A DNA stretch of 33,245 nt from a virus (IMGVR_UViG_3300032053_008780:1-33245); one strand, 5' to 3'; shown: positions 3,710 to 27,083, counted from the first letter of the stretch. Notes: a model not told the origin generated them from the letters alone. A program made the numbers and translations.

Positions 3710-3892
3710 ATGGAACGAGACTATTTTGTAGAATATGAAATGGCCCGTGACGAAATATCTAGTCTTAAAAGTAGAAATGAAGAGTTAGAAAAAACTCTTA
3801 AAGTATTAGTAGATGCTCTTGATAAAACATCTGTCTTGGTCTTCGCAAAGAATCTTTCCGAGCTCAATAACTTCTTAAAACAAAAAGAATAA
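3710..3892 (+). CDS. Small coiled-coil hypothetical protein (60 aa)
   Basis: ATG preceded by TAGGAG at good spacing. The 60-residue product is acidic and charged, with a heptad-like stretch from about residue 12 to 40 (ISSLKSRNEELEKTL) that predicts a coiled coil. It sits three bases before the replicase PHP gene, so the two are probably one transcript. An overlapping minus-strand frame is judged a shadow because it lacks a ribosome site and context. Function unknown. Confidence 0.7.
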   Translation: MERDYFVEYEMARDEISSLKSRNEELEKTLKVLVDALDKTSVLVFAKNLSELNNFLKQKE

Positions 3893-3895
3893 AAA

Positions 3896-4825
3896 ATGTC
3901 ATTTGTACACACTCATGTTCATGTTCAGACAAGTTTGTTAGATGGACTAATATCTAACGATAAACTAGTTAAGTATGTTAAAGAACTAGGGATGTCTGCT
4001 GTAGCTATTACAGACCATGGAACTATACATGGATGGGTAGACTTCTATAAGCAATGTAAAGAAAATAATATTAAACCAATTCTTGGTAGTGAATTTTATA
4101 TCACTTGGGACGAAGACAAAAAGGAAGAGACGATTAAAGACAACAGACATATGATAGTTCTTGCTAAGAATCAAAAGGGATATGAAGCTATTATTAAGAT
4201 GATTACTAATGCTAATCAGAATAACTTCTATTATAAACCGCGTGTTTATTATAAACATCTGGAGAATTACGCCGGAGATTTAATTTTAACCTCGGCATGT
4301 CTTGCGGGTCCAATAGCAAATCTATTTAAAGAACAAAAATTAATTGAGGCCGAAGAACTCTTTAAGTATTATAAAGAGACGTTTGATACTAATTTCTATG
4401 CAGAGATTCAAGAGAATGGTATTCCAGAACAGGAACCATATAATAGATATCTTATTGGATTATCTAAAAAGTATTCTATTAAAGTAATTCCAACTACAGA
4501 TGCACACTTCTTAAAGAAAGAAGACTATAAAACACATCAACTAATGATGGCAGCGCAGTTACAAAAGACTATTAAAGAGTACCTAGGCGACGATAAAATG
4601 CGCTATGGCCCCGAATATTATATAAAGACTCCAGACGAGATGAAACAGATAGCTATTAAATATGAAGTCCCAGAAGCAATTGAAAATACATTAGAAATAG
4701 CAGAAGCGTGTAATGTCGAAATAGAATTTGGTAAATCAAGATTACCATCTTTCCCAGTCCAAGACTCTGAAGATAAAGAGGAGTTTCTAGAATGGCAAAA
4801 GAAAAAACAGACAAGCGTGGAATAG
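3896..4825 (+). CDS. dnaE: DNA polymerase III alpha, N-terminal PHP fragment
   Basis: This 309-residue product covers only the PHP (polymerase and histidinol phosphatase) domain of DnaE-type replicases. The motifs run in order: VHTHVHVQTSLLDG at 4-17, AITDHG at 37-42, ILGSEFY at 62-68, RHMIVLAKN at 84-92, LTSACLAG at 131-138 and TTDAHF at 200-205. The nine usual metal-ligand positions all seem kept (H5, H7, D16, H41, E66, H85, C135, D202, H204), which in active family members supports 3'-5' proofreading. The protein ends just after the LPSFPV linker, where full-length DnaE runs on into the palm; that part is encoded from 5907. Together the two parts (309 + 871 aa) match a normal full-length alpha subunit. 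It overlaps the next gene by 34 bases. Confidence 0.88.
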   Translation: MSFVHTHVHVQTSLLDGLISNDKLVKYVKELGMSAVAITDHGTIHGWVDFYKQCKENNIKPILGSEFYITWDEDKKEETIKDNRHMIVLAKNQKGYEAIIKMITNANQNNFYYKPRVYYKHLENYAGDLILTSACLAGPIANLFKEQKLIEAEELFKYYKETFDTNFYAEIQENGIPEQEPYNRYLIGLSKKYSIKVIPTTDAHFLKKEDYKTHQLMMAAQLQKTIKEYLGDDKMRYGPEYYIKTPDEMKQIAIKYEVPEAIENTLEIAEACNVEIEFGKSRLPSFPVQDSEDKEEFLEWQKKKQTSVE

Positions 4826-5031
4826 TTCGAAAAGAATTTCTAGTTGAATGTTGGCAATGTGGCTTCGAGGAGTTTAGTGACTTTGATTGTAAGAATGTTA
4901 CTGAGTTCACAAATTATTTAGCCGATAGTGGTTGGGGTAAATTAGAAGGTGCAGGTTGGATTTGTGAAAGCTGTATAAGACTATTTCAAGAAGCAGAGGA
5001 AGAAGAAGAAAAAGGAACAGAGGAGAAATAG
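4792..5031 (+). CDS. Small zinc-ribbon-like protein (79 aa)
   Basis: The ATG lies inside the end of the PHP gene, in another frame, behind a strong GAGGAG site that is itself part of the PHP coding sequence. The product has two Cys pairs, CWQC near residue 20 and CESC near residue 62, spaced as in a treble-clef or zinc-ribbon fold, and a very acidic Glu-rich tail. It is one of three genes lying between the two replicase parts. Its role is unknown; DNA or protein binding is possible. Confidence 0.7.
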   Translation: MAKEKTDKRGIVRKEFLVECWQCGFEEFSDFDCKNVTEFTNYLADSGWGKLEGAGWICESCIRLFQEAEEEEEKGTEEK

Positions 5032-5032
5032 A

Positions 5033-5347
5033 ATGAAAGAAGAAACAATCGGTTTCCCAACTAAGTGGGAAAAAGAAGATGAGTATTTTAAAGATTTACT
5101 TAAAGAAGATAAAGAATTAGCTGAGTACGATGGTCTTACTAAAAATAAAAAAACATATATTGAGTTAGCAAAAGAATTAGACGAAAGAGATCCTTTTATT
5201 GAAGATATGCTTTTAATAAAAGATATAGTATCTACTCAATATCAAAATATAGTTTTATGGAAAGATGTTATTGAGAGTCCTCAATATAAACTAACACAAG
5301 ATATACTAGACCTAGTAAATAAATATCTTATTAAATATCACAACTGA
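5033..5347 (+). CDS. Acidic hypothetical protein (104 aa)
   Basis: Starts one base after the previous stop, behind a GAGGAG site. The product is helical-looking, rich in Lys, Glu and Asp, without Cys, signal peptide or membrane segment. I do not recognise the family. Position and tight spacing put it in the same transcript as the split replicase. Confidence 0.65.
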   Translation: MKEETIGFPTKWEKEDEYFKDLLKEDKELAEYDGLTKNKKTYIELAKELDERDPFIEDMLLIKDIVSTQYQNIVLWKDVIESPQYKLTQDILDLVNKYLIKYHN

Positions 5348-5356
5348 GAATAAAAA

Positions 5357-5914
5357 ATGGAAACATGGTTTACTTCAGATCTGCATCTAGGGCATGATAA
5401 TATCATAAGGTCATGTAATAGGCCCTTTAAATTTGCTCAGGAACACGACGAAACTATTATAGAAAACTTTAATTCTGTCGTCACAGATAAAGATATAGTA
5501 TATTTCTTAGGTGATTTTTCTATGAAATGGAAATACGTAGAAACCTATTTTCATAGATTACACGGAAGATGGGTTTGGATAAAAGGAAATCATGACCATT
5601 CGTTTTCTCATAAATTGATTAAACAATATCCCAAAAAGATTGAAGGATTTTATGACATCAGAGATATTAAAGTTGATAATACTTCTATAGTATTATGCCA
5701 TTATCCTATGGTTAGTTGGAATAGAAGTTGTCATGGTAGCTATCAGTTCTATGGCCATTGTCATGGAACTTATGATGATTCAAATAAACTATCTTTAGAT
5801 GTTGGAGTAGATGTCTGGGGGTTTAAGCCGGTACACCTCGAAGAACTTAAATCTAAGATGTTGGCTAAGATTGCTGTAAATAAACCTCATTTTGATCGGA
5901 AGCTTGATGAATGA
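5357..5914 (+). CDS. Calcineurin-like metallophosphoesterase (185 aa)
   Basis: The metal-binding motifs of the calcineurin-like phosphoesterase family are present in order: DLHLGH near residue 8, GDFS near 52, GNHDH near 77, CHYPM near 114 and GHCHG near 132. The size fits the small bacterial and phage group of this superfamily; the substrate is unknown (phosphomonoester, phosphodiester or nucleotide). The start has only a weak ribosome site (GAGAATAAAAA). Its last eight bases overlap the ATG of the palm-to-OB part of the replicase, suggesting coupled translation. It is the largest gene inserted between the two replicase parts. Confidence 0.85.
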   Translation: METWFTSDLHLGHDNIIRSCNRPFKFAQEHDETIIENFNSVVTDKDIVYFLGDFSMKWKYVETYFHRLHGRWVWIKGNHDHSFSHKLIKQYPKKIEGFYDIRDIKVDNTSIVLCHYPMVSWNRSCHGSYQFYGHCHGTYDDSNKLSLDVGVDVWGFKPVHLEELKSKMLAKIAVNKPHFDRKLDE

Positions 5915-8522
5915 ATCTGTTCAATATTTTGAGTTTAAATGCTGGAAGGGCCTTAAACTTCGCGGCCTAGACTCTAAACCCGAATATATAAAACGTCTCG
6001 AATACGAAATCAAAATTATTGAGGAGATGAATTTTGTTGATTACTTCTTAATAGTACAAGACTTTATCCAGTGGTCTAAACGTAATGCTATTATGATCGG
6101 ACCAGGACGGGGCAGCATAGGAGGAAGCCTGGTAGCGTTTTGCTTATATATAACAGAAATAGATCCTCTTAAATATGATTTACCATTTGAACGTTTTTTA
6201 AATCCTGGAAGAAAAGATTCATATCCTGACGCCGACACAGATGTCGATCCAGAACATCGCAATGATTTATTTAAATACCTGCAAAACAAATATGGAGAAG
6301 ATAGAGTAGCTAGAATTGGTACAGTTAATACAATGCTTGCCAAGTCAGCTATTCAAAAAGTTTGTACTGCATTGGGTATAGACATCTCTGAAGGTGAAAC
6401 TCTCCGTAAATTAATGCCCGCCCCAGATGCCGGTAAAACTCATACGCTAAAAGAATCTTATGAAATAGTTCCTGAATTAAAGAAGATTCGCAATGCTTCA
6501 ATCGGACCATCATATACAGAATCTCAAAGAACTCAACGCAAAATTCTTGAATGGGCCGAACGATTCGAGGGTATTATATCGGCGTATGGAGTTCACGCAG
6601 CGGGCACTGTAATTTCAAATATTCCACTTACTCAACTGGCCCCACAATATAAAGCTAAAGATGGCGGTCTTGCTACGATGTGGGACATGAAGGATATAGA
6701 AAAGATAGGTTTAATTAAATTTGATTTATTAGGGTTAGCAACTCTTTCAAAGATACGACACTGCTTAGATTTAATACTGCAATACAGAAATATTGAAATT
6801 GATATTAATAAAATTCCTATGGAAGATCCTAAAGTTTTTGAAACGATCCAAACAGGACTTCTATTAGGCGTATTTCAGATGGAAAGTTTGGGTATGCAAC
6901 AACTAGTGTTGGATGTTAAGCCCACCACTATTCAAGATTTATCGGCAATATTAGCTATTTATCGTCCAGGACCCCTTGGAACTTCGGGATTAGCAAGCTA
7001 CTTAGCTTGGCGTAATGGAGCTGAACCTGAGTATCTTGTTCCAGAATTAAAACCAATATTAGCTGATACTGGTGGGTTTATTATTTACCAAGAACAAATC
7101 ATGAAAATCGCAGTAGAATTAGCTGGATATACAATGTCTGAGGCTGATACGCTTCGAAAAGCAATGGGTAAAAAGCTTCAAGACGTACTAGACAAAGAAT
7201 ATCCTAGATTCAAACGTGGGTGGCTCAACCATGCCCTACCTGAACGCCAATTTGAAATACTATGGGAACAACTACTAGACTTTGCAAAGTATGCTTTCAA
7301 TCGCGCACACAGCGTTGGGTATGCTCATATCACATATCAAACAGCCTACCTTAAAACATATTATCCAGTTGAATTCTTAACTGCTTGTATGGAAATGGAT
7401 TATGGAAAGACAGATCAGTTAGCTGAATACCTAGTTGAGTGTAAAAGATTAAAGCTCAAAGTAGCTGGGCCATCTATAAATAAAAGTTCTAGAGGTTTTA
7501 AGATATATGGCGAGAATGAAGTCAGGTTTGGTCTAGTTACAATTAAAAATATAGGCGAAGGCCCAGTAGTAGAGATACTTGAAAAACGCTCTACAGGACC
7601 ATTTAAGTGTATTGAGGACTTCTGTGATAGAGTTCATCTGGGAAAAGTTAACCGTGCTCGTGTAGAAGCTTTAGTTAAGTCTGGTGCTTTTGATGAATTC
7701 CAACAAACTAGATCATCAATGCTTGCTTGGATGGACGAATATTGGGAATGGATGAAGTTAGATCGTGCATACCAAAATAAATATAATACATATAAAAATT
7801 CTATTAAAAAATATGAAGATAGATTAGAAGAAATTAAACGAGGCTCAACCAAGAAGTCTTTAAAGAAACCTGAAGAACCAGAATTACCTATTAAGCCTAT
7901 AGTTAAATGGATTCCCGAAAAAGATATGAAGGAGATGTTGCAAGATGAATACGAACTTCTTGGGTTTTTTGCTTCAAGTCATCCTCTTGATGGGATATCT
8001 AATGTTCCTATTGGTGATTTAGATGTAATTAAGTCTTTTAGTTATCTTCCTAACAACTCGCCAATTAAATTATGTTGTATATTTTCTACACTTAAAGAAC
8101 ATTTTATTCTTAAGAGTAAACAGTATATGGCCTTTTGTACTCTAGAAGATTTAACTGGAAGAACTCAGGGCGTAATCTTTCCTAAAGCTTATACTCAATT
8201 TAAAAAATTAATTGAAGTAAACTCTCCTATAGTTATTGATGGGGTATTACAAGCTGAAGAGACTGAGGACGGAAATAAAAAAATTAGCGTAATCGTTAAT
8301 AGGATTGAACCATTAAAAATAGATAACGTTCCTAAAGAAATTGATCTTGACTGTTCTATCAAGTTATCTAATTTAGACAAGTTAACTAAATATATTTCAA
8401 ATGAAAAAACAAATTATAAAATCAATCTTTCTGTGAAAATCAATAAAGAGTTATCTTTGAAAGTGAATAAACCAATATACACAACAAAACATTTAATAGA
8501 TATAAAACAAGAGTTGACTTAA
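5907..8522 (+). CDS. dnaE: DNA polymerase III alpha, palm-to-OB fragment
   Basis: With the ATG at 5907 (GGAAG upstream; a TTG at 5892 is also in frame) the product has 871 residues. It starts where the PHP part stops, with PEYIKRLEYEI and MNFVDYFLIV, which in one-piece DnaE follow the PHP domain. PGRGSIGGSL (66-75) and PDADTD (107-112) are palm motifs; D273 in KFDLLGL matches the third catalytic Asp. IYQEQIMKIA and AFNRAHSVGYA mark the fingers and following region, and an OB fold (CTLEDLTGRTQGVIF) lies near 745-800. The short Lys-rich end shows no clear tau- or clamp-binding motif. Polymerase activity looks intact; it probably binds the separate PHP protein. Confidence 0.92.
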   Translation: MNESVQYFEFKCWKGLKLRGLDSKPEYIKRLEYEIKIIEEMNFVDYFLIVQDFIQWSKRNAIMIGPGRGSIGGSLVAFCLYITEIDPLKYDLPFERFLNPGRKDSYPDADTDVDPEHRNDLFKYLQNKYGEDRVARIGTVNTMLAKSAIQKVCTALGIDISEGETLRKLMPAPDAGKTHTLKESYEIVPELKKIRNASIGPSYTESQRTQRKILEWAERFEGIISAYGVHAAGTVISNIPLTQLAPQYKAKDGGLATMWDMKDIEKIGLIKFDLLGLATLSKIRHCLDLILQYRNIEIDINKIPMEDPKVFETIQTGLLLGVFQMESLGMQQLVLDVKPTTIQDLSAILAIYRPGPLGTSGLASYLAWRNGAEPEYLVPELKPILADTGGFIIYQEQIMKIAVELAGYTMSEADTLRKAMGKKLQDVLDKEYPRFKRGWLNHALPERQFEILWEQLLDFAKYAFNRAHSVGYAHITYQTAYLKTYYPVEFLTACMEMDYGKTDQLAEYLVECKRLKLKVAGPSINKSSRGFKIYGENEVRFGLVTIKNIGEGPVVEILEKRSTGPFKCIEDFCDRVHLGKVNRARVEALVKSGAFDEFQQTRSSMLAWMDEYWEWMKLDRAYQNKYNTYKNSIKKYEDRLEEIKRGSTKKSLKKPEEPELPIKPIVKWIPEKDMKEMLQDEYELLGFFASSHPLDGISNVPIGDLDVIKSFSYLPNNSPIKLCCIFSTLKEHFILKSKQYMAFCTLEDLTGRTQGVIFPKAYTQFKKLIEVNSPIVIDGVLQAEETEDGNKKISVIVNRIEPLKIDNVPKEIDLDCSIKLSNLDKLTKYISNEKTNYKINLSVKINKELSLKVNKPIYTTKHLIDIKQELT

Positions 8523-8561: not shown

Positions 8562-8594
8562 TAATAAATGGGTAAATCCCACAAAGGAGTTTTA

Positions 8595-9341
8595 ATGCGT
8601 GAATTTGTAATCCATACTGGAAGCAATAAAAAAGCAGAAGTCATACCCCTTGGGGATATCCATTATGGACACAAGGTGTGTGATATAGCATTATTGAAAA
8701 CTATGGTTACTTATATTGGGAAAGGATCAAATAGGCGTTGGTTTGGAGTGGGTGATTTCATCGAAGGAATACCCGCGAATTATAAGATTCCTACCTGGGA
8801 ACAAGACAAAACCCCAGACGAACAACGAAAAGAAATTTCATCTATATTAAAACCAATAGCAAAAAAGGGGTTGTTCTTAATTGATGGTAATCATGAAGAA
8901 CGAATTCTAAATCAAACCTCTATATCCCCAGGTGGATTAATTTCTGAAATGCTTGGTATGGCATTCCATGATGAACCAGAATATATTAAAATTATTGTTC
9001 GTTCTGGAGCTGGTCAAGAACAAGAATACTTATTTGTAGTAGCCCATGGTGGTAGTGCTGCACTGTCAAACGACAAAGAATTTGAAGACCTTCGCAAATC
9101 ATTTCCTATGGGAGATGTATTTTGTCTAGGCCACGATCATCGTCTTCGTGTATTTCCAGGAGTACATTTCTACGAGAACGTTACTAAGAAATTTTATTGT
9201 GTAAGGTGTGGAACTTATTTACGTTATCCAAGTTATGCCTTCAAAAAACTCTTATCCCCTAATGCTTTAGGGAGTCCTAGAATTTACTTGTCATCAGAAC
9301 GCTATAAAATAGAAATTGATGTTACAGGTGATCTCGAATAG
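8595..9341 (+). CDS. Metallophosphoesterase (248 aa)
   Basis: The ATG at 8595 is chosen over one at 8568 because an AAAGGAG site stands seven bases before it and the predicted transcript starts near 8568. Motifs of the calcineurin-like family are in order: GDIHYGH near residue 20, GVGDF near 48, DGNHEER near 97, VAHGG near 145 and LGHDHRL near 174. It is unrelated in detail to the phosphoesterase at 5357, being longer and lacking the CHYP form. The neighbourhood of replicase and PhoH suggests nucleic-acid or nucleotide metabolism, but the substrate cannot be read from sequence. Confidence 0.85.
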   Translation: MREFVIHTGSNKKAEVIPLGDIHYGHKVCDIALLKTMVTYIGKGSNRRWFGVGDFIEGIPANYKIPTWEQDKTPDEQRKEISSILKPIAKKGLFLIDGNHEERILNQTSISPGGLISEMLGMAFHDEPEYIKIIVRSGAGQEQEYLFVVAHGGSAALSNDKEFEDLRKSFPMGDVFCLGHDHRLRVFPGVHFYENVTKKFYCVRCGTYLRYPSYAFKKLLSPNALGSPRIYLSSERYKIEIDVTGDLE

Positions 9342-9374: not shown

Positions 9375-10229
9375 GTGGCTGAAATTTATACCGGTGTGAA
9401 GACTCTTGCGGTTTCTACTGAAAAAATTAATGAACTTTATGAAAAAAGGGAAATTAGTCTTGAAGCATTAGATGGAAGAATGAATTTTCATCCTAACATG
9501 TTTGTTATTGTTACAGCTGGGGAAAGTCAGTCGGCTATTACAAGGGTTAAAGATAAGAAGTTACAGATAGTTAAAAGTAAACGTAAGTCCTTTGGGGTTC
9601 AATCTAGGAATAAAGAACAAGATATGGCTCTGGATTTACTATTAGACGATGATGTTAAAGTAGTAGTCTTAACTGGCAGGGCGGGAACTGGAAAAACTTT
9701 GATTTCGCTTTCGGCCTCGTTTGAGTTAATGAAAAAAGAAAAATATCGTAAACTTATTTTAACTCGCCCCATGACCCAGGTGGGTAAAAGAGAACTTGGG
9801 ATTTTACCAGGAAATGTAAATGAAAAGTTCGGACCTTATCTACAAAACTATATCAACAATATAGAACAACTTACTGGTTCAGACGATATGGAAATGCTTG
9901 CCGAAAAATATCCCATGGATCTAATACCTCTTCAATTAATTCGTGGAGCTTCTTGGATTGATTCATTTGTAATAGCGGATGAAATGCAATGTATTGATTT
10001 TTTTGAATTACTAACTTTGGGAACTCGTATTGGCGAAAATAGTAAAATTATAATCATGGGAGATCTCAAACAACGAGACGAAAAAATAGCTATAGAAAAG
10101 ACTGGTATCTATAAATTTGTTAACGATGCTCGAAGCAAAGCATCTGAATTTGTTGGAGTTGTTCAATTGGAAAAATGTGAACGAAGCGATGTTAGCGCTT
10201 TATTCGCGGACATATTCGAGGAAGAATAA
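9375..10229 (+). CDS. phoH: PhoH-like P-loop ATPase
   Basis: A GTG start follows an AGGAG site. The 284-residue product has Walker A TGRAGTGKT near residue 100, the PhoH-typical LTRPMTQVGKRELG near 132, a Walker B-like FVIADEMQ near 198, and GDLKQRD near 229. This is the PhoH/helicase-like fold common in large phages, thought to act in RNA or phosphate-stress metabolism; its true phage role is unsettled. The ~80 N-terminal residues before the ATPase are less typical. The stop overlaps the next start (TAATG). Confidence 0.92.
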   Translation: MAEIYTGVKTLAVSTEKINELYEKREISLEALDGRMNFHPNMFVIVTAGESQSAITRVKDKKLQIVKSKRKSFGVQSRNKEQDMALDLLLDDDVKVVVLTGRAGTGKTLISLSASFELMKKEKYRKLILTRPMTQVGKRELGILPGNVNEKFGPYLQNYINNIEQLTGSDDMEMLAEKYPMDLIPLQLIRGASWIDSFVIADEMQCIDFFELLTLGTRIGENSKIIIMGDLKQRDEKIAIEKTGIYKFVNDARSKASEFVGVVQLEKCERSDVSALFADIFEEE

Positions 10230-10534
10230 TGGATTCAACAGAAGATTATATTGAAGTACTTGAGAAAGAGAATATTGAACTTCAAGAAGAACTTGATCGG
10301 GTTGAATATAAACTTCAAGAAGCTGAAGATCAGATTCAGTTACTAGAACAACAATTAGACGAAGATAAAAAAAGTGAACTAAAAGATTCTTTGCTTCAAG
10401 AATCCATCAAAATGATTGAGGACATTTATCGAATTAATAAAGACCATAAAGATTCACCAATGCTAAAGGCTTTATTACTCGATAGAAAATACGATATGTT
10501 CCTAGAGTTGAGGCAGGAATATTTAGAACTATAA
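10229..10534 (+). CDS. Acidic coiled-coil hypothetical protein (101 aa)
   Basis: The ATG overlaps the phoH stop, so translation is coupled. Residues 5-55 form a long Glu/Leu heptad pattern (VLEKENIELQEELDRV) that predicts a coiled coil, followed by a mixed-charge helical end. No enzyme motif. It may serve as an assembly or adaptor protein; I do not recognise the family. Confidence 0.7.
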   Translation: MDSTEDYIEVLEKENIELQEELDRVEYKLQEAEDQIQLLEQQLDEDKKSELKDSLLQESIKMIEDIYRINKDHKDSPMLKALLLDRKYDMFLELRQEYLEL

Positions 10535-10541
10535 TAAACCT

Positions 10542-10772
10542 ATGGAAAAGCTTCGCATTATATCTTATGATCCCTGTTACTACGATAAAAATAGTTATAT
10601 GATAGTTGGACAATGGATTGAAGATCCCACCGATGAAGACTTAAATAGTTTAATCAATCAAAAATTTTATTTTCAAGGTATTGAATATCAGACTTGGTGT
10701 ATTAAACATATTAATTTATTTAAGAAAGACGGAACAGTAACTTTACTTGCCTTAAGACTTGGACGAAATTAA
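10542..10772 (+). CDS. Hypothetical protein (76 aa)
   Basis: Starts seven bases after the previous stop with no strong ribosome site. The small mixed alpha/beta-looking product has Trp, Tyr and Cys residues but no recognised motif. Its stop touches the stop of the minus-strand gene that begins at 10773, so the two genes converge with no spacer. Confidence 0.6.
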   Translation: MEKLRIISYDPCYYDKNSYMIVGQWIEDPTDEDLNSLINQKFYFQGIEYQTWCIKHINLFKKDGTVTLLALRLGRN

Positions 10773-14284: not shown

Positions 14285-14979
14285 TAGATCATTCCCAACA
14301 AAGACTCATCCGTATGACACTCTTTAGCTAAAAATTTTTCTTCTGCCTGCATAGATTTTGGCCCGAATATTCCATCTATCTTATCTGTGTAAAAACCAAG
14401 TTTAGATAATATAGTTTGCATATTAACAGCAACTTGTTTCCTACATTGTTCTAAATTAACTTTCATACCCGGACAACTCTTTACTAATTTCTTTTCACCA
14501 TTAATCATTTTCCAACCAGTAGTCTCAAGCTCCCTGTGACCCTGTACGTCAGAAGGAAAGAGACCTAATTGAAGACATTTAACGGCTATTAAATTTAAGG
14601 CTGTGCCCAATTGCTTAGCTGCAGGAGATTTTGGACTTAGGGTCTCGTCTGCCGGATCGTAAATAAGACAAACTCCTAAACATATCTTGTTCCATCTACC
14701 AACGTGCCAACTAACCTCTGTATCTTCTAAGGTTTTATAAATATCTCCATCTTCACCAATAGTATAATGATATGTATAGGAAGCGCAGCCTGTCGCTGAA
14801 ATATGATTATTGGGAGAAGTATCGTATTTAGCTATGGCCTCGATAGTTTTTTGAGCCCCAGCAGCCATTTGTTTCATCCCGGTACAATGTAGAATGATTT
14901 GTTTAATATCATTTGGGGTTCGTTGTTCGTTCTTTTTGGTTGGATGTCTAACTAATTGAGAAATAATATTTTTAATCAT
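14284..14979 (-). CDS. N-acetylmuramoyl-L-alanine amidase endolysin with PG-binding domain
   Basis: The start at 14979 is chosen because a GGAGGAAAAGA site precedes it; the longer in-frame reading overlaps the upstream gene. The 231-residue product is an Amidase_2/PGRP-type enzyme that cuts the MurNAc-L-Ala bond: IILHCTG (H31), YHYTIGEDGDIY, WHVG, GHRE near 137 and SCPG near 157, giving the usual His-His-Cys zinc ligands. The C-terminus (FYTDKIDGIFGPKSMQAEEKF) resembles a PG_binding_1 repeat. No signal peptide is seen, so release needs a holin; candidates lie at 18707-19359. Confidence 0.9.
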   Translation of the reverse strand: MIKNIISQLVRHPTKKNEQRTPNDIKQIILHCTGMKQMAAGAQKTIEAIAKYDTSPNNHISATGCASYTYHYTIGEDGDIYKTLEDTEVSWHVGRWNKICLGVCLIYDPADETLSPKSPAAKQLGTALNLIAVKCLQLGLFPSDVQGHRELETTGWKMINGEKKLVKSCPGMKVNLEQCRKQVAVNMQTILSKLGFYTDKIDGIFGPKSMQAEEKFLAKECHTDESLLGMI

Positions 14980-15517
14980 TCTTTTCCTCCTGCTGAGATT
15001 TAATTTTCTTAAGCCATTCTTTTTTGTGTTGATATTGTTCCTTGCGAAAAGCTTTTGCTTTTTCTTTATTGTAGTTAATTTTAATCTTAGGTGTTTTATT
15101 AAGAAGTAACGGTTTAGTTTCTTCAAACTTTTCTATATAAAGTTTCCAAATATAATCCTCAGTCACTAATTTAATTTCATCAAATTTAATTGCTATGTAT
15201 ACAAACCCAGCATCTATAGCCGCTTGTTTCTTCCGTTCATCCCGTTCCTGGATATCTTTAAGGCCAGTTTGGCCGCAGCCGAAAGCTACTTTATAATGTT
15301 GTCCACCCATAACTTCAATTACACATTTAAGATCTAGAAGTACCCAGTCAAAATGTTCACGACCAGACTTATGATTAGGATTAATTTTACAGACAGGATA
15401 TTCTTGAAGTACTTGATAATTTTGAAATAATTTACTAGAACGTAAAATATCTCCGACTATACGATGTAATTTACTGGCAGATTTTCGATACTCATATTTG
15501 AATCTAGAACTCTTCAC
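14972..15517 (-). CDS. VSR/PD-(D/E)XK-like endonuclease (181 aa)
   Basis: Core motifs fit a DUF559/VSR-like nuclease: QEYP with E39, HFDWVL with D57, IEVMGGQHY with E68 and H74, then KDIQERDERKKQAAIDAGF and VYIAIKFDE. The last 55 residues are strongly basic (KAKAFRKEQYQHKKEW), likely DNA-contacting. The start is a GTG with no proper ribosome site; a TACAAT element lies just upstream, so the message may be leaderless. The stop overlaps the amidase start by eight bases. Confidence 0.75.
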   Translation of the reverse strand: MKSSRFKYEYRKSASKLHRIVGDILRSSKLFQNYQVLQEYPVCKINPNHKSGREHFDWVLLDLKCVIEVMGGQHYKVAFGCGQTGLKDIQERDERKKQAAIDAGFVYIAIKFDEIKLVTEDYIWKLYIEKFEETKPLLLNKTPKIKINYNKEKAKAFRKEQYQHKKEWLKKIKSQQEEKND

Positions 15518-24642: not shown

Positions 24643-26118
24643 TTATTTTGTTAAAGTAGTTATGTATTTCTTAAGAGTTATTAAATCAATTGCTTCTTTA
24701 TTTCCCATAATTCTTGAAGCTAAAAGTCCCACGGCGTTTCCCACTAATCCAATTTCTTCAGCACGAGATCCAAGATACACCAATGGGGCGGTAATTGCAA
24801 AATAAGCATCACCAGCACCAGTAGTATCTATTACTTCAGAAGAGAATACAGGAACCGAAGTTTCTTTTTTATTTTGATAAATTTTTGTACCATATTTACC
24901 CTGAGTTATAGAAAGAGTTCTACAATCAAAAAATCCACTTAATTCATTGGCTAAATCTTGTACGAGAGAATATTTATTACTTAAAGCTAATCTAGCCTCT
25001 GGGAGGTCTATTGATATATAGTCGGCCCAGGAATACTTTGTTACAAAATTGAAACCTTTATTTGCGCTATTAGTTTGTACATTTAAACACAAGAAAGCCT
25101 TTTTATATTTACCTAGAAAATGTATTATCTTTTCAGTAAACATTCCGTGACCAAAATCATTAATTAAAATAATATCTATATCAGCATTATTAATATAATG
25201 AATAATTTCCTGTTCGTATTCTATATAAGGAAGATCATTCATATAATCCACACAAAATAATTGTTTCTTTTTATCGTCAATAAAACGCTCTTTTATTATC
25301 TTTCTATCCTCTGAAATTTCAAACGAATCTATTTTAATATTTTGTAAATTTTGCGTTACTATGCTTTTATCTAGACTAGTTAATCCAGTATATAAAATAA
25401 CGTTATCGCATACTTTACCAAGATGCCTTGCCGTTGCTAAAGCTCCACCAAAATGAGTTTCTGTAAAATTAAATTTAGAAGACAAGATGGCGTGTTTTGA
25501 TGCAACATTAGTAATGTTGACATATGTATATTTATCATAAATTGCCTCCCCGACCACAAGAATTTTTAATGTTTTTATCTTATCTAAACAATTAAAAATA
25601 CTATCAATATCAATAGAAGCTTTACTCAAAAAAAGTTGAGCTTCATTACTAAGAGGATCAAAAAAATTATTTAATAATTTAGTAGAACTAAAAACTACTT
25701 CGTCTGTAAAAACTAATTGGCCACTATAGGCTTCTACAGCATCTTTTTCTAAAGAAATTTTACCAGTAATATCCTTATTTAAATCTAAGTACTCACTTCC
25801 TTTAACGAAAAAATTAGGTCGAATTAAATTGATTATTTTTATCGCATCTTCTGAATCTGATAGAATCACATAATCAACTATATCTAAAGCAGCTAACATT
25901 TCCATGCGTAAATCTTGTTTAAAATACGGTCTACCAGGCCCTTTGTTGACATGCCTATCTGCGGTAACAGCAACAACCAAAACATCTCCATATGTCTTGG
26001 CTGAAGCTAAATGTTTTAAATGTCCTATATGTAATAAATCAAAACACCCCTGACATAAAACTATCTTACCTTCTTTAACTATTTCTTTAACGTCAAAAAT
26101 TACTTTAGCTGAAGACAT
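24643..26118 (-). CDS. Nucleotidyltransferase-PfkB kinase fusion, HldE-like with reversed domain order
   Basis: Residues 1-155 form a cytidylyltransferase-like domain (CQGCFDLLHIGHLKHL near 23-38 with HIGH; FVKGSEY near 104). Residues ~180-491 form a PfkB/ribokinase domain ending in DTTGAGDAYF near 430. Bacterial HldE has the kinase first and the nucleotidyltransferase last; here the order is the other way round. Expected roles are phosphorylation of heptose 7-phosphate at C1 and nucleotide transfer to heptose 1-phosphate. The nucleotide cannot be read from sequence. Overlaps the epimerase stop (TAATG). Confidence 0.85.
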   Translation of the reverse strand: MSSAKVIFDVKEIVKEGKIVLCQGCFDLLHIGHLKHLASAKTYGDVLVVAVTADRHVNKGPGRPYFKQDLRMEMLAALDIVDYVILSDSEDAIKIINLIRPNFFVKGSEYLDLNKDITGKISLEKDAVEAYSGQLVFTDEVVFSSTKLLNNFFDPLSNEAQLFLSKASIDIDSIFNCLDKIKTLKILVVGEAIYDKYTYVNITNVASKHAILSSKFNFTETHFGGALATARHLGKVCDNVILYTGLTSLDKSIVTQNLQNIKIDSFEISEDRKIIKERFIDDKKKQLFCVDYMNDLPYIEYEQEIIHYINNADIDIILINDFGHGMFTEKIIHFLGKYKKAFLCLNVQTNSANKGFNFVTKYSWADYISIDLPEARLALSNKYSLVQDLANELSGFFDCRTLSITQGKYGTKIYQNKKETSVPVFSSEVIDTTGAGDAYFAITAPLVYLGSRAEEIGLVGNAVGLLASRIMGNKEAIDLITLKKYITTLTK

Positions 26119-27083
26119 TATTTAATCCCTTGTTGTTGCATCCATAAACCATTATCATTATGAACTTCTTTTTTAGAGAAAGTACCATCTATAAAAAGAT
26201 TTATTAAATCATTAATAGCGTCATCTACAGTAAACTTCGGCTGGAAGCCCGCCGTTAAAATCTTTTTAGAAGAGACCCTGTAAGAACGAGGATCGTTCGA
26301 TGGAGTAACTCGAACCTCTACCTCTTTATTTAACCTAAACTTAACGCTAGATTTAACTTTATCGGCAAGTTCTAGTAAAGATAAATTCTCAAAGCCCACA
26401 TTAAAAATCTCCCCAGAAGTAATTTCTGGATTATCTAAACACCAAATATATGAATCTGCAATATCTTTAATATGAACATTGGGGCGTACTTGTTGACCCC
26501 CAAATACTGTTATAATACCTCTTTCCAACGCACCCACTGTTAGAGCATTAACCGCTAAATCAAATCTCATTCTAGGAGAATATCCACAGACAGTAGCTGG
26601 TCGAATAATGGTTACATCAATATCATCTTGATAACTAAGAACAACTCGTTCCCCGACCATTTTAGTTTTATTATAATCAGAAATAGGAAGCAGATATAAG
26701 TCTTCGGTAACCTCTAATTCTTCTTTTATTCCGTACACACTCCCAGACGAAGCAAATATAAAACGAGGGATATGTTGTCTTTTACAGGCGTCTAGTAATT
26801 GATGAGTGGCTAACACATTTACTTCCCAAGCAAGTTTACTATCTATAATGGCACCTGGATCGCTGGCAACGGCAGCTAAATGAAAGACTATATCTGCTTC
26901 GCCTAAATCCTCAGCAGTTAATTCTCTAGTGTCCTTCTTAAGGATAGTTAATCTAGAGTGAGGTTCTAATCTATTACCAAACCATTCGGCATCTATAGAC
27001 AGAACATCATGACCTTGTTTGAGTAACTTCTGAACCAAGATCATTCCTTTATATCCACATCCGCCCGTAACTATTGTACGCAT
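26118..27083 (-). CDS. NAD-dependent sugar epimerase/dehydratase (321 aa)
   Basis: An extended SDR enzyme: TGGCGYKGM at the N-terminus (NAD-binding Gly motif), IVFHLAAVASD near 70, FASSGSVYG near 109 with the catalytic Ser, and YNKTK near 136 with Tyr and Lys. It starts behind GGAGG and overlaps the radical SAM gene by 13 bases. In this cassette it may act on an activated heptose, like HldD, or on another nucleotide sugar. The substrate is not certain. Confidence 0.85.
   Translation of the reverse strand: MRTIVTGGCGYKGMILVQKLLKQGHDVLSIDAEWFGNRLEPHSRLTILKKDTRELTAEDLGEADIVFHLAAVASDPGAIIDSKLAWEVNVLATHQLLDACKRQHIPRFIFASSGSVYGIKEELEVTEDLYLLPISDYNKTKMVGERVVLSYQDDIDVTIIRPATVCGYSPRMRFDLAVNALTVGALERGIITVFGGQQVRPNVHIKDIADSYIWCLDNPEITSGEIFNVGFENLSLLELADKVKSSVKFRLNKEVEVRVTPSNDPRSYRVSSKKILTAGFQPKFTVDDAINDLINLFIDGTFSKKEVHNDNGLWMQQQGIK

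What the first reader, a model, noticed from the sequence alone, without database searches (positions are those of the whole stretch)
3896..8522. Phage DnaE replicase split at the PHP-palm border, with three genes between the parts
The sequence shows a 309-aa PHP gene and an 871-aa palm-to-OB gene that together make a normal alpha subunit (about 1180 aa), separated by a zinc-ribbon gene, an acidic gene and a phosphoesterase. Both halves keep their motifs (nine PHP metal-ligand positions; PDADTD and KFDLLGL in the palm), so this is not decay. A free-standing PHP domain could be a separate proofreading subunit. PHP and polymerase in one chain is the rule for DnaE.
Basis: partly seen in the sequence, partly recalled or inferred. 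Interest (0 to 1): 0.78.

Follow-up and report, generated by a model that had tools for sequence, protein, structure and literature searches.

The report
Two-gene phage DnaE replicase
This phage makes its main DNA-copying enzyme (DnaE) as two separate proteins, a PHP proofreading-type domain and the polymerase, instead of the usual single chain; the split is real, inherited across related phages and has apparently arisen several times, so it is a natural two-part version of a known enzyme rather than a sequencing error or an unheard-of case.

Summary
A 309-aa PHP gene (3896-4825) and an 871-aa palm-to-OB polymerase gene (5907-8522) together cover a complete DnaE alpha subunit. Three genes lie between: a zinc-ribbon protein, an acidic protein and a calcineurin-like phosphoesterase. 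All nine PHP ligands (HHDHEHCDH) and the catalytic aspartates are kept; each half is predicted to fold confidently alone and matches solved alpha subunits. It is not an artefact: relatives L051, L152 and L089 share the split and form one clade with the window in both the polymerase and the PHP tree. L051 also keeps PHP, zinc ribbon and phosphoesterase in that order. L152 and L089 have the halves adjacent, the polymerase start overlapping the PHP stop. Over the polymerase tree the split needs five changes; one clade is rejected (AU p=0.012). All 80 related bacterial dnaE loci are fused. The split is not new in kind: Microbacterium cluster EF phages (PMC7302621) and Gordonia phage Suzy carry it. 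Best reading: a two-chain alpha subunit with PHP bound non-covalently as scaffold and probable proofreader. New here: the recurrence, the inherited cassette between the halves, and the kept PHP site. Complex formation and exonuclease activity are untested.

The parts
3896..4825 (+). PHP gene: free-standing DnaE PHP domain, 309 aa, all nine metal-ligand positions kept
   Evidence: Pfam PHP E=2e-43; phrog_405 DNA polymerase columns 42-347 E=8e-86; HHDHEHCDH; AlphaFold2 mean pLDDT 92.2; Foldseek best hits Taq Pol III alpha, TM about 0.85
4792..5031 (+). 79-aa zinc-ribbon protein, start overlapping the PHP stop by 34 nt
   Evidence: C20xxC23 and C58xxC61 and FLVEC..CG kept in the gene at the same place in L051, 36% identity; no Pfam or PHROG family
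5033..5347 (+). 104-aa acidic protein, function unknown
   Evidence: ORF; no family; not found between the halves in L051
5357..5914 (+). 185-aa calcineurin-like metallophosphoesterase
   Evidence: Pfam Metallophos E=1e-5, phrog_547 E=1.5e-49; 45% identical to the gene at the same place in L051
5907..8522 (+). Polymerase gene: palm, thumb, fingers, HhH and OB of DnaE without PHP, 871 aa; ATG overlaps the upstream stop by 8 nt
   Evidence: Pfam DNA_pol3_alpha E=3e-79, DNA_pol3_finger, HHH_6, OB; phrog_405 columns 335-1136 E=7e-229; AlphaFold2 mean pLDDT 89.0; Foldseek hits are bacterial Pol III alpha

Best explanation
The phage's DnaE replicase is a two-chain alpha subunit. A PHP-first dnaE was broken into two open reading frames at the PHP-palm linker in an ancestor of this phage clade, and the halves were then inherited together. 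In relatives L152 and L089 they are adjacent and overlapping, which suggests translation re-initiation; in the branch leading to the window and L051 a zinc-ribbon and a phosphoesterase gene came to lie in the junction. After translation from one operon the PHP protein most likely docks non-covalently on the palm/thumb side of the polymerase, as the tethered domain does in bacterial Pol III. There it supports the polymerase and probably supplies the metal-dependent 3'-5' proofreading nuclease, since no DnaQ-type exonuclease is visible in the split-clade contigs. Shown: the split, its inheritance, conservation of motifs, confident predicted folds of each half. Inferred: docking, nuclease activity, translational coupling, order of split and insertion.
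For: Both halves match consecutive ranges of the same solved alpha chains and their models match Pol III alpha. L051, L152 and L089 share the split; the four-member clade has SH-aLRT 99 in the polymerase tree and 100 in the PHP tree, so both halves share one history. Nine of nine split representatives that can be judged keep the full PHP ligand set, against 63 of 97 fused representatives (related sequences, so no formal test). Conserved PHP and polymerase positions are retained at near the fused level (window 0.77 and 0.94; fused means 0.83 and 0.92). One PHP-family match per split genome or contig searched. No RNase_T/DnaQ match in the window, L051, L089, L152, L084, L106, L136, Suzy or FreddieHg records. 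Junction overlap ATGAATGA in both the window and L152. [quoted passage not shown] split halves of the B-family polymerase of Aeromonas phage 25 co-purify and are active (PMC2988022).
Against: No complex was predicted or tested, so docking rests on analogy. Absence of DnaQ is weak evidence because most records are fragments. The order 'split first, insertion later' is parsimony on four loci. Some PHP consensus positions differ in the window (for example L6T, G110N, G164D, H174N).
Confidence: 0.72

Rival explanations
1. The PHP protein has left the polymerase and works alone, for example as a free nuclease or phosphatase, while the polymerase works without a PHP domain.
For: It is a separate gene near a phosphoesterase and, downstream of the polymerase, a DNA-repair-exonuclease-like gene. 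Free-standing PHP nucleases exist: RNase AM is a structural hit.
Against: The window's split clade appears in both trees, conserved PHP positions are kept, and every split locus keeps one PHP gene just upstream of the polymerase. PHP integrity is needed for Pol III stability in E. coli.
Confidence: 0.14
2. The two halves end up in one chain after all, by protein trans-splicing or programmed frameshifting.
For: A split intein does occur within the polymerase of a related phage (L136), and in L152, L089, L084 and L136 the two frames overlap.
Against: No intein motif at the PHP end or polymerase start in the window, and three genes over 1.08 kb between the halves exclude frameshifting there.
Confidence: 0.03
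3. Gene decay or an assembly or frameshift error in one contig.
For: The window is a virus contig of unknown completeness; single odd contigs such as L182 have an in-frame stop inside PHP.
Against: The same split in L051 (two contigs), L089 (three contigs) and L152, and in isolate genomes Suzy and FreddieHg; all motifs kept.
Confidence: 0.02
4. About origin: a homing endonuclease insertion created the split and was later lost or replaced by the present genes, so the arrangement is mainly a scar of selfish DNA. Compatible with the two-chain reading of function.
For: L106 carries an HNH gene directly before the polymerase; inteins or LAGLIDADG genes sit in the polymerases of L089 and L136; published precedents are nrdA of phage Aeh1 and gene 43 of Aeromonas phage 25 (PMC2988022).
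Against: None of the three inserted genes of the window matches an endonuclease family, and adjacent, insert-free split forms L152, L089, L084 and L182 need no insertion.
Confidence: 0.25

Closest known systems
Microbacterium cluster EF (Krampusvirus) phages, e.g. FreddieHg genes 57/58, and Gordonia phage Suzy genes 64/65
   Same: PHP and polymerase of DnaE in two genes, split at the same domain border
   Different: Adjacent genes on a distant branch of the tree; the paper notes the two genes in one sentence without analysis
Bacterial DnaE1-type Pol III alpha (M. tuberculosis, T. aquaticus, E. coli)
   Same: Domain order, catalytic residues and fold; full PHP metal site as in the active PHP type
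   Different: One chain there; in the window two chains, and the polymerase has a long predicted helix (602-644) between HhH and OB
Group 2.2 jumbo-phage minimal Pol III alpha, split into NTP-binding and template-binding proteins (PMC7824862)
   Same: A phage C-family polymerase encoded by separate genes
   Different: Cut inside the catalytic core, lacks the other Pol III domains, accompanied by a family B polymerase
Split gene 43 of Aeromonas phages 25/44RR and split nrdA of phage Aeh1 (PMC2988022)
   Same: Essential phage enzyme in two chains with genes or sequence between; halves reassemble and are active
   Different: Different enzyme families; homing endonucleases implicated
Split-intein DnaE of cyanobacteria
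   Same: DnaE encoded in two genes
   Different: Rejoined by trans-splicing (mentioned in PMC3919608); no intein at the window's junction

Membership tests
C-family DNA polymerase, DnaE type | PHP, palm, thumb/fingers, HhH, OB domains in this order | tested here: met
   All present over two genes in this order
C-family DNA polymerase, DnaE type | Three catalytic aspartates of the palm | tested here: met
   D108, D110 and D273 invariant
C-family DNA polymerase, DnaE type | PHP and polymerase domains in a single polypeptide (stated as general in PMC3666897) | tested here: not met
   Two open reading frames with three genes between
Active PHP proofreading exonuclease | Nine ligand positions HHDHEH[C/H]DH | tested here: met
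   motif definition in PMC12926913
Active PHP proofreading exonuclease | 3'-5' exonuclease activity | not testable with these tools
   Needs an assay
Split phage DnaE (Krampusvirus/Terapinvirus type) | PHP-only gene followed by palm-first gene | tested here: met
Split phage DnaE (Krampusvirus/Terapinvirus type) | Common descent with those split genes | tested here: inconclusive
   All ten split forms as one clade are rejected in the polymerase tree (p-AU 0.012, quick tree) and Suzy/FreddieHg lie on a distant branch; the PHP tree alone does not force separate origins
Split-intein (trans-spliced) DnaE | N- and C-intein pieces at the junction | tested here: not met
   No intein sequence at either end, no intein family hit

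The most novel reading that the evidence does not exclude
The PHP protein is a true, separately regulated proofreading subunit acting in trans, and the zinc-ribbon and phosphoesterase proteins encoded between the halves are accessory parts of the same replisome (for example bridging PHP to polymerase or acting on a reaction product), so that these phages carry a multi-subunit C-family replicase that has evolved repeatedly from the one-chain enzyme.
Probability: 0.2. Interest if true: 0.78.

Novelty: new variant of a known kind. Interest (0 to 1): 0.52.

Why it matters
C-family polymerases are described as having PHP, palm, thumb and fingers within a single polypeptide (PMC3666897), and the PHP domain is thought to be both scaffold and, in many lineages, proofreader; the two roles are hard to separate by mutation because PHP mutations destabilise the whole enzyme. 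Natural two-gene versions allow the PHP protein to be added, left out or exchanged, so its contribution to stability, polymerisation and proofreading can be measured directly. The repeated splitting in phages also suggests that the covalent link is dispensable and marks the PHP-palm linker as a tolerated break point.

Tried and rejected
A single-protein search with the PHP gene in viral contigs found only one relative, and the first PHP alignment had no block conserved enough to search with. 'Relatives' cannot be drawn for a virus record. Early lists suggested Pseudomonas PB1-like phages might be split because they had polymerase but no PHP match; PB1 ORF55 is one long ORF with extra N-terminal sequence, so rejected. 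Staphylococcus S-CoN_Ph7 and L026 are broken inside the polymerase, not at the PHP border. Moorella MTATph1 and Agathobaculum AB434P3 are fused. A promoter of its own for the polymerase: promoter-like sites are no more frequent than in shuffles. An interface test by modelling the two chains together was not possible: the structure tool takes one chain, and a joined chain is not encoded by the window. L182 was left out of the ligand count because an in-frame stop cuts its PHP. The 2011 survey of viral replicases that I know of (doi 10.1093/nar/gkr581) is not held, so an earlier mention of the split there cannot be excluded.

Full report
What is in the sequence. The window carries, on the plus strand, a tight row of genes: 3710-3892 (60 aa), PHP 3896-4825, 4792-5031, 5033-5347, 5357-5914, polymerase 5907-8522, then 8568-9341 (phrog_7339, DNA repair exonuclease) and a PhoH gene. 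The PHP protein matches the PHP part of DNA polymerase III alpha (phrog_405 columns 42-347) and the polymerase protein the rest (columns 335-1136). The halves match consecutive ranges of the same solved chains, for example M. tuberculosis DnaE1 7pu7 9-322 and 328-924. Profiles built from relatives are covered to the last PHP column and from the first polymerase column, so nothing appears to be missing at the border.

Both halves look functional. The nine PHP ligand positions read HHDHEHCDH, the definition of an active site used in PMC12926913. The palm aspartates are invariant across the 38 aligned sequences. AlphaFold2 models of each half alone have mean pLDDT 92.2 and 89.0, and their closest solved structures are bacterial Pol III alpha subunits. 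Positions conserved in fused relatives are kept at 77% (PHP, fused mean 83%, sd 10) and 94% (polymerase, fused mean 92%, sd 5).

Relatives. In phage isolates and viral contigs most DnaE genes are fused: 194 of 217 loci, with redundancy; after clustering at 70% identity, 10 of 109 representatives are split at the PHP-palm border. These ten are the window, L051, L089, L152, L136, L084, L106, L182, Gordonia phage Suzy (L034) and Microbacterium phage FreddieHg (L035). The four representatives most similar to the window's polymerase, L051 (50%), L152 (48%), L089 (43%) and L136 (41%), are all split. All 80 related loci from bacterial genomes are fused.

Inheritance. On the polymerase tree the window, L051, L089 and L152 form one clade (SH-aLRT 99), with window+L051 and L089+L152 as pairs; the PHP tree gives the same four as one clade (100). 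The two genes have therefore most likely been inherited together since a split ancestor. Over the whole polymerase tree the split label needs five changes, at least three of them forced by well-supported branches, and holding all split forms together is rejected (p-AU 0.012, quick tree); the shorter PHP tree also needs five but forces only one. Repeated splitting is the simplest reading; repeated re-fusion is not formally excluded.

Anatomy of the junctions. L152, L089, L136, L084 and L182 have adjacent genes in which a polymerase start overlaps the PHP stop; L152 uses ATGAATGA, the same eight bases with which the window's polymerase start overlaps the phosphoesterase stop. L051 has PHP, zinc ribbon, phosphoesterase, then a 171-aa and a 113-aa gene, then polymerase; its zinc ribbon and phosphoesterase are 36% and 45% identical to the window's. 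L106 has about 1.4 kb between the halves, with an HNH gene directly before the polymerase. So split forms without and with an insert coexist in the window's clade, and part of the insert is inherited. PHP proteins of this clade end in a shared pattern of acidic residues followed by FL.W.

How it probably works. In bacterial Pol III the PHP domain sits beside the thumb and is a major structural element (PMC3666897). The likeliest reading is that the PHP protein binds the polymerase non-covalently at the same place. No DnaQ-type exonuclease was found in the window or in the other split records except that of L182, whose PHP is interrupted by an in-frame stop; together with the intact metal site this favours PHP as the proofreader. 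That step is inferred, and most records are fragments. There is precedent for phage enzymes working in two pieces: split nrdA of phage Aeh1 is fully active, and the split B-family polymerase of Aeromonas phage 25 co-purifies and is active (PMC2988022).

Known or new. [quoted passage not shown] A different split of a minimal Pol III alpha is known in jumbo phages (PMC7824862). I found no paper in the held library that analyses the PHP-palm split, its recurrence or the inserted genes; the 2011 survey of viral replicases is not held. New here are the recurrence, the inherited split with part of a cassette in the window's clade, and the kept PHP site. Verdict: real, a new variant of a known kind, of moderate interest because it makes the role of PHP directly testable.

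Noticed in passing
L136 7995-11763: Polymerase itself broken by what looks like a split intein: N-part ends GRYSFNK|CLVPETTVVLADG, a separate LAGLIDADG gene (9738-10586) follows, C-part begins ...VSGN|SHSAAYS; so this phage's DnaE appears to be three genes, two of them probably trans-spliced.
   Followed up: partly
L089 7171-8332 (same in L133, L134): Intein with LAGLIDADG domain in the polymerase at YQEQ|C...VHN|C.
   Followed up: partly
L115 1422-4961: Fused phage DnaE with what looks like a small intein at the same FNK|C...SN|SH site as the split intein of L136.
   Followed up: no
L106 5603-6013: HNH endonuclease-like gene between PHP and polymerase, ending over the polymerase start.
   Followed up: partly
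L182 about 6600-7910: In-frame stop inside the PHP gene just after the H-x-H motif (NLHTHSEYS*RSSLDG); the same contig carries a DnaQ-type exonuclease. Possible recoded stop, error or decay.
   Followed up: no
L026 5062-8625: Phage DnaE broken at the PDxD catalytic motif (436-aa and 541-aa frames with about 630 bases between); PHROGs holds families that begin or end at the same place (phrog_13169, phrog_12219), so an intron or endonuclease insertion there may be common.
   Followed up: no
window 5907-8522, protein residues 602-644: Long predicted helix between HhH and OB; similar sequence in L051, L089 and L152, in the region where E. coli alpha has its clamp-binding motif.
   Followed up: no
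window 24643-27083: Two neighbouring minus-strand genes resemble a heptose kinase/adenylyltransferase and a nucleotide-sugar epimerase, suggesting phage-borne sugar synthesis.
   Followed up: no
window 14972-15517: HNH homing-endonuclease-like gene on the minus strand overlapping the endolysin ORF.
   Followed up: no
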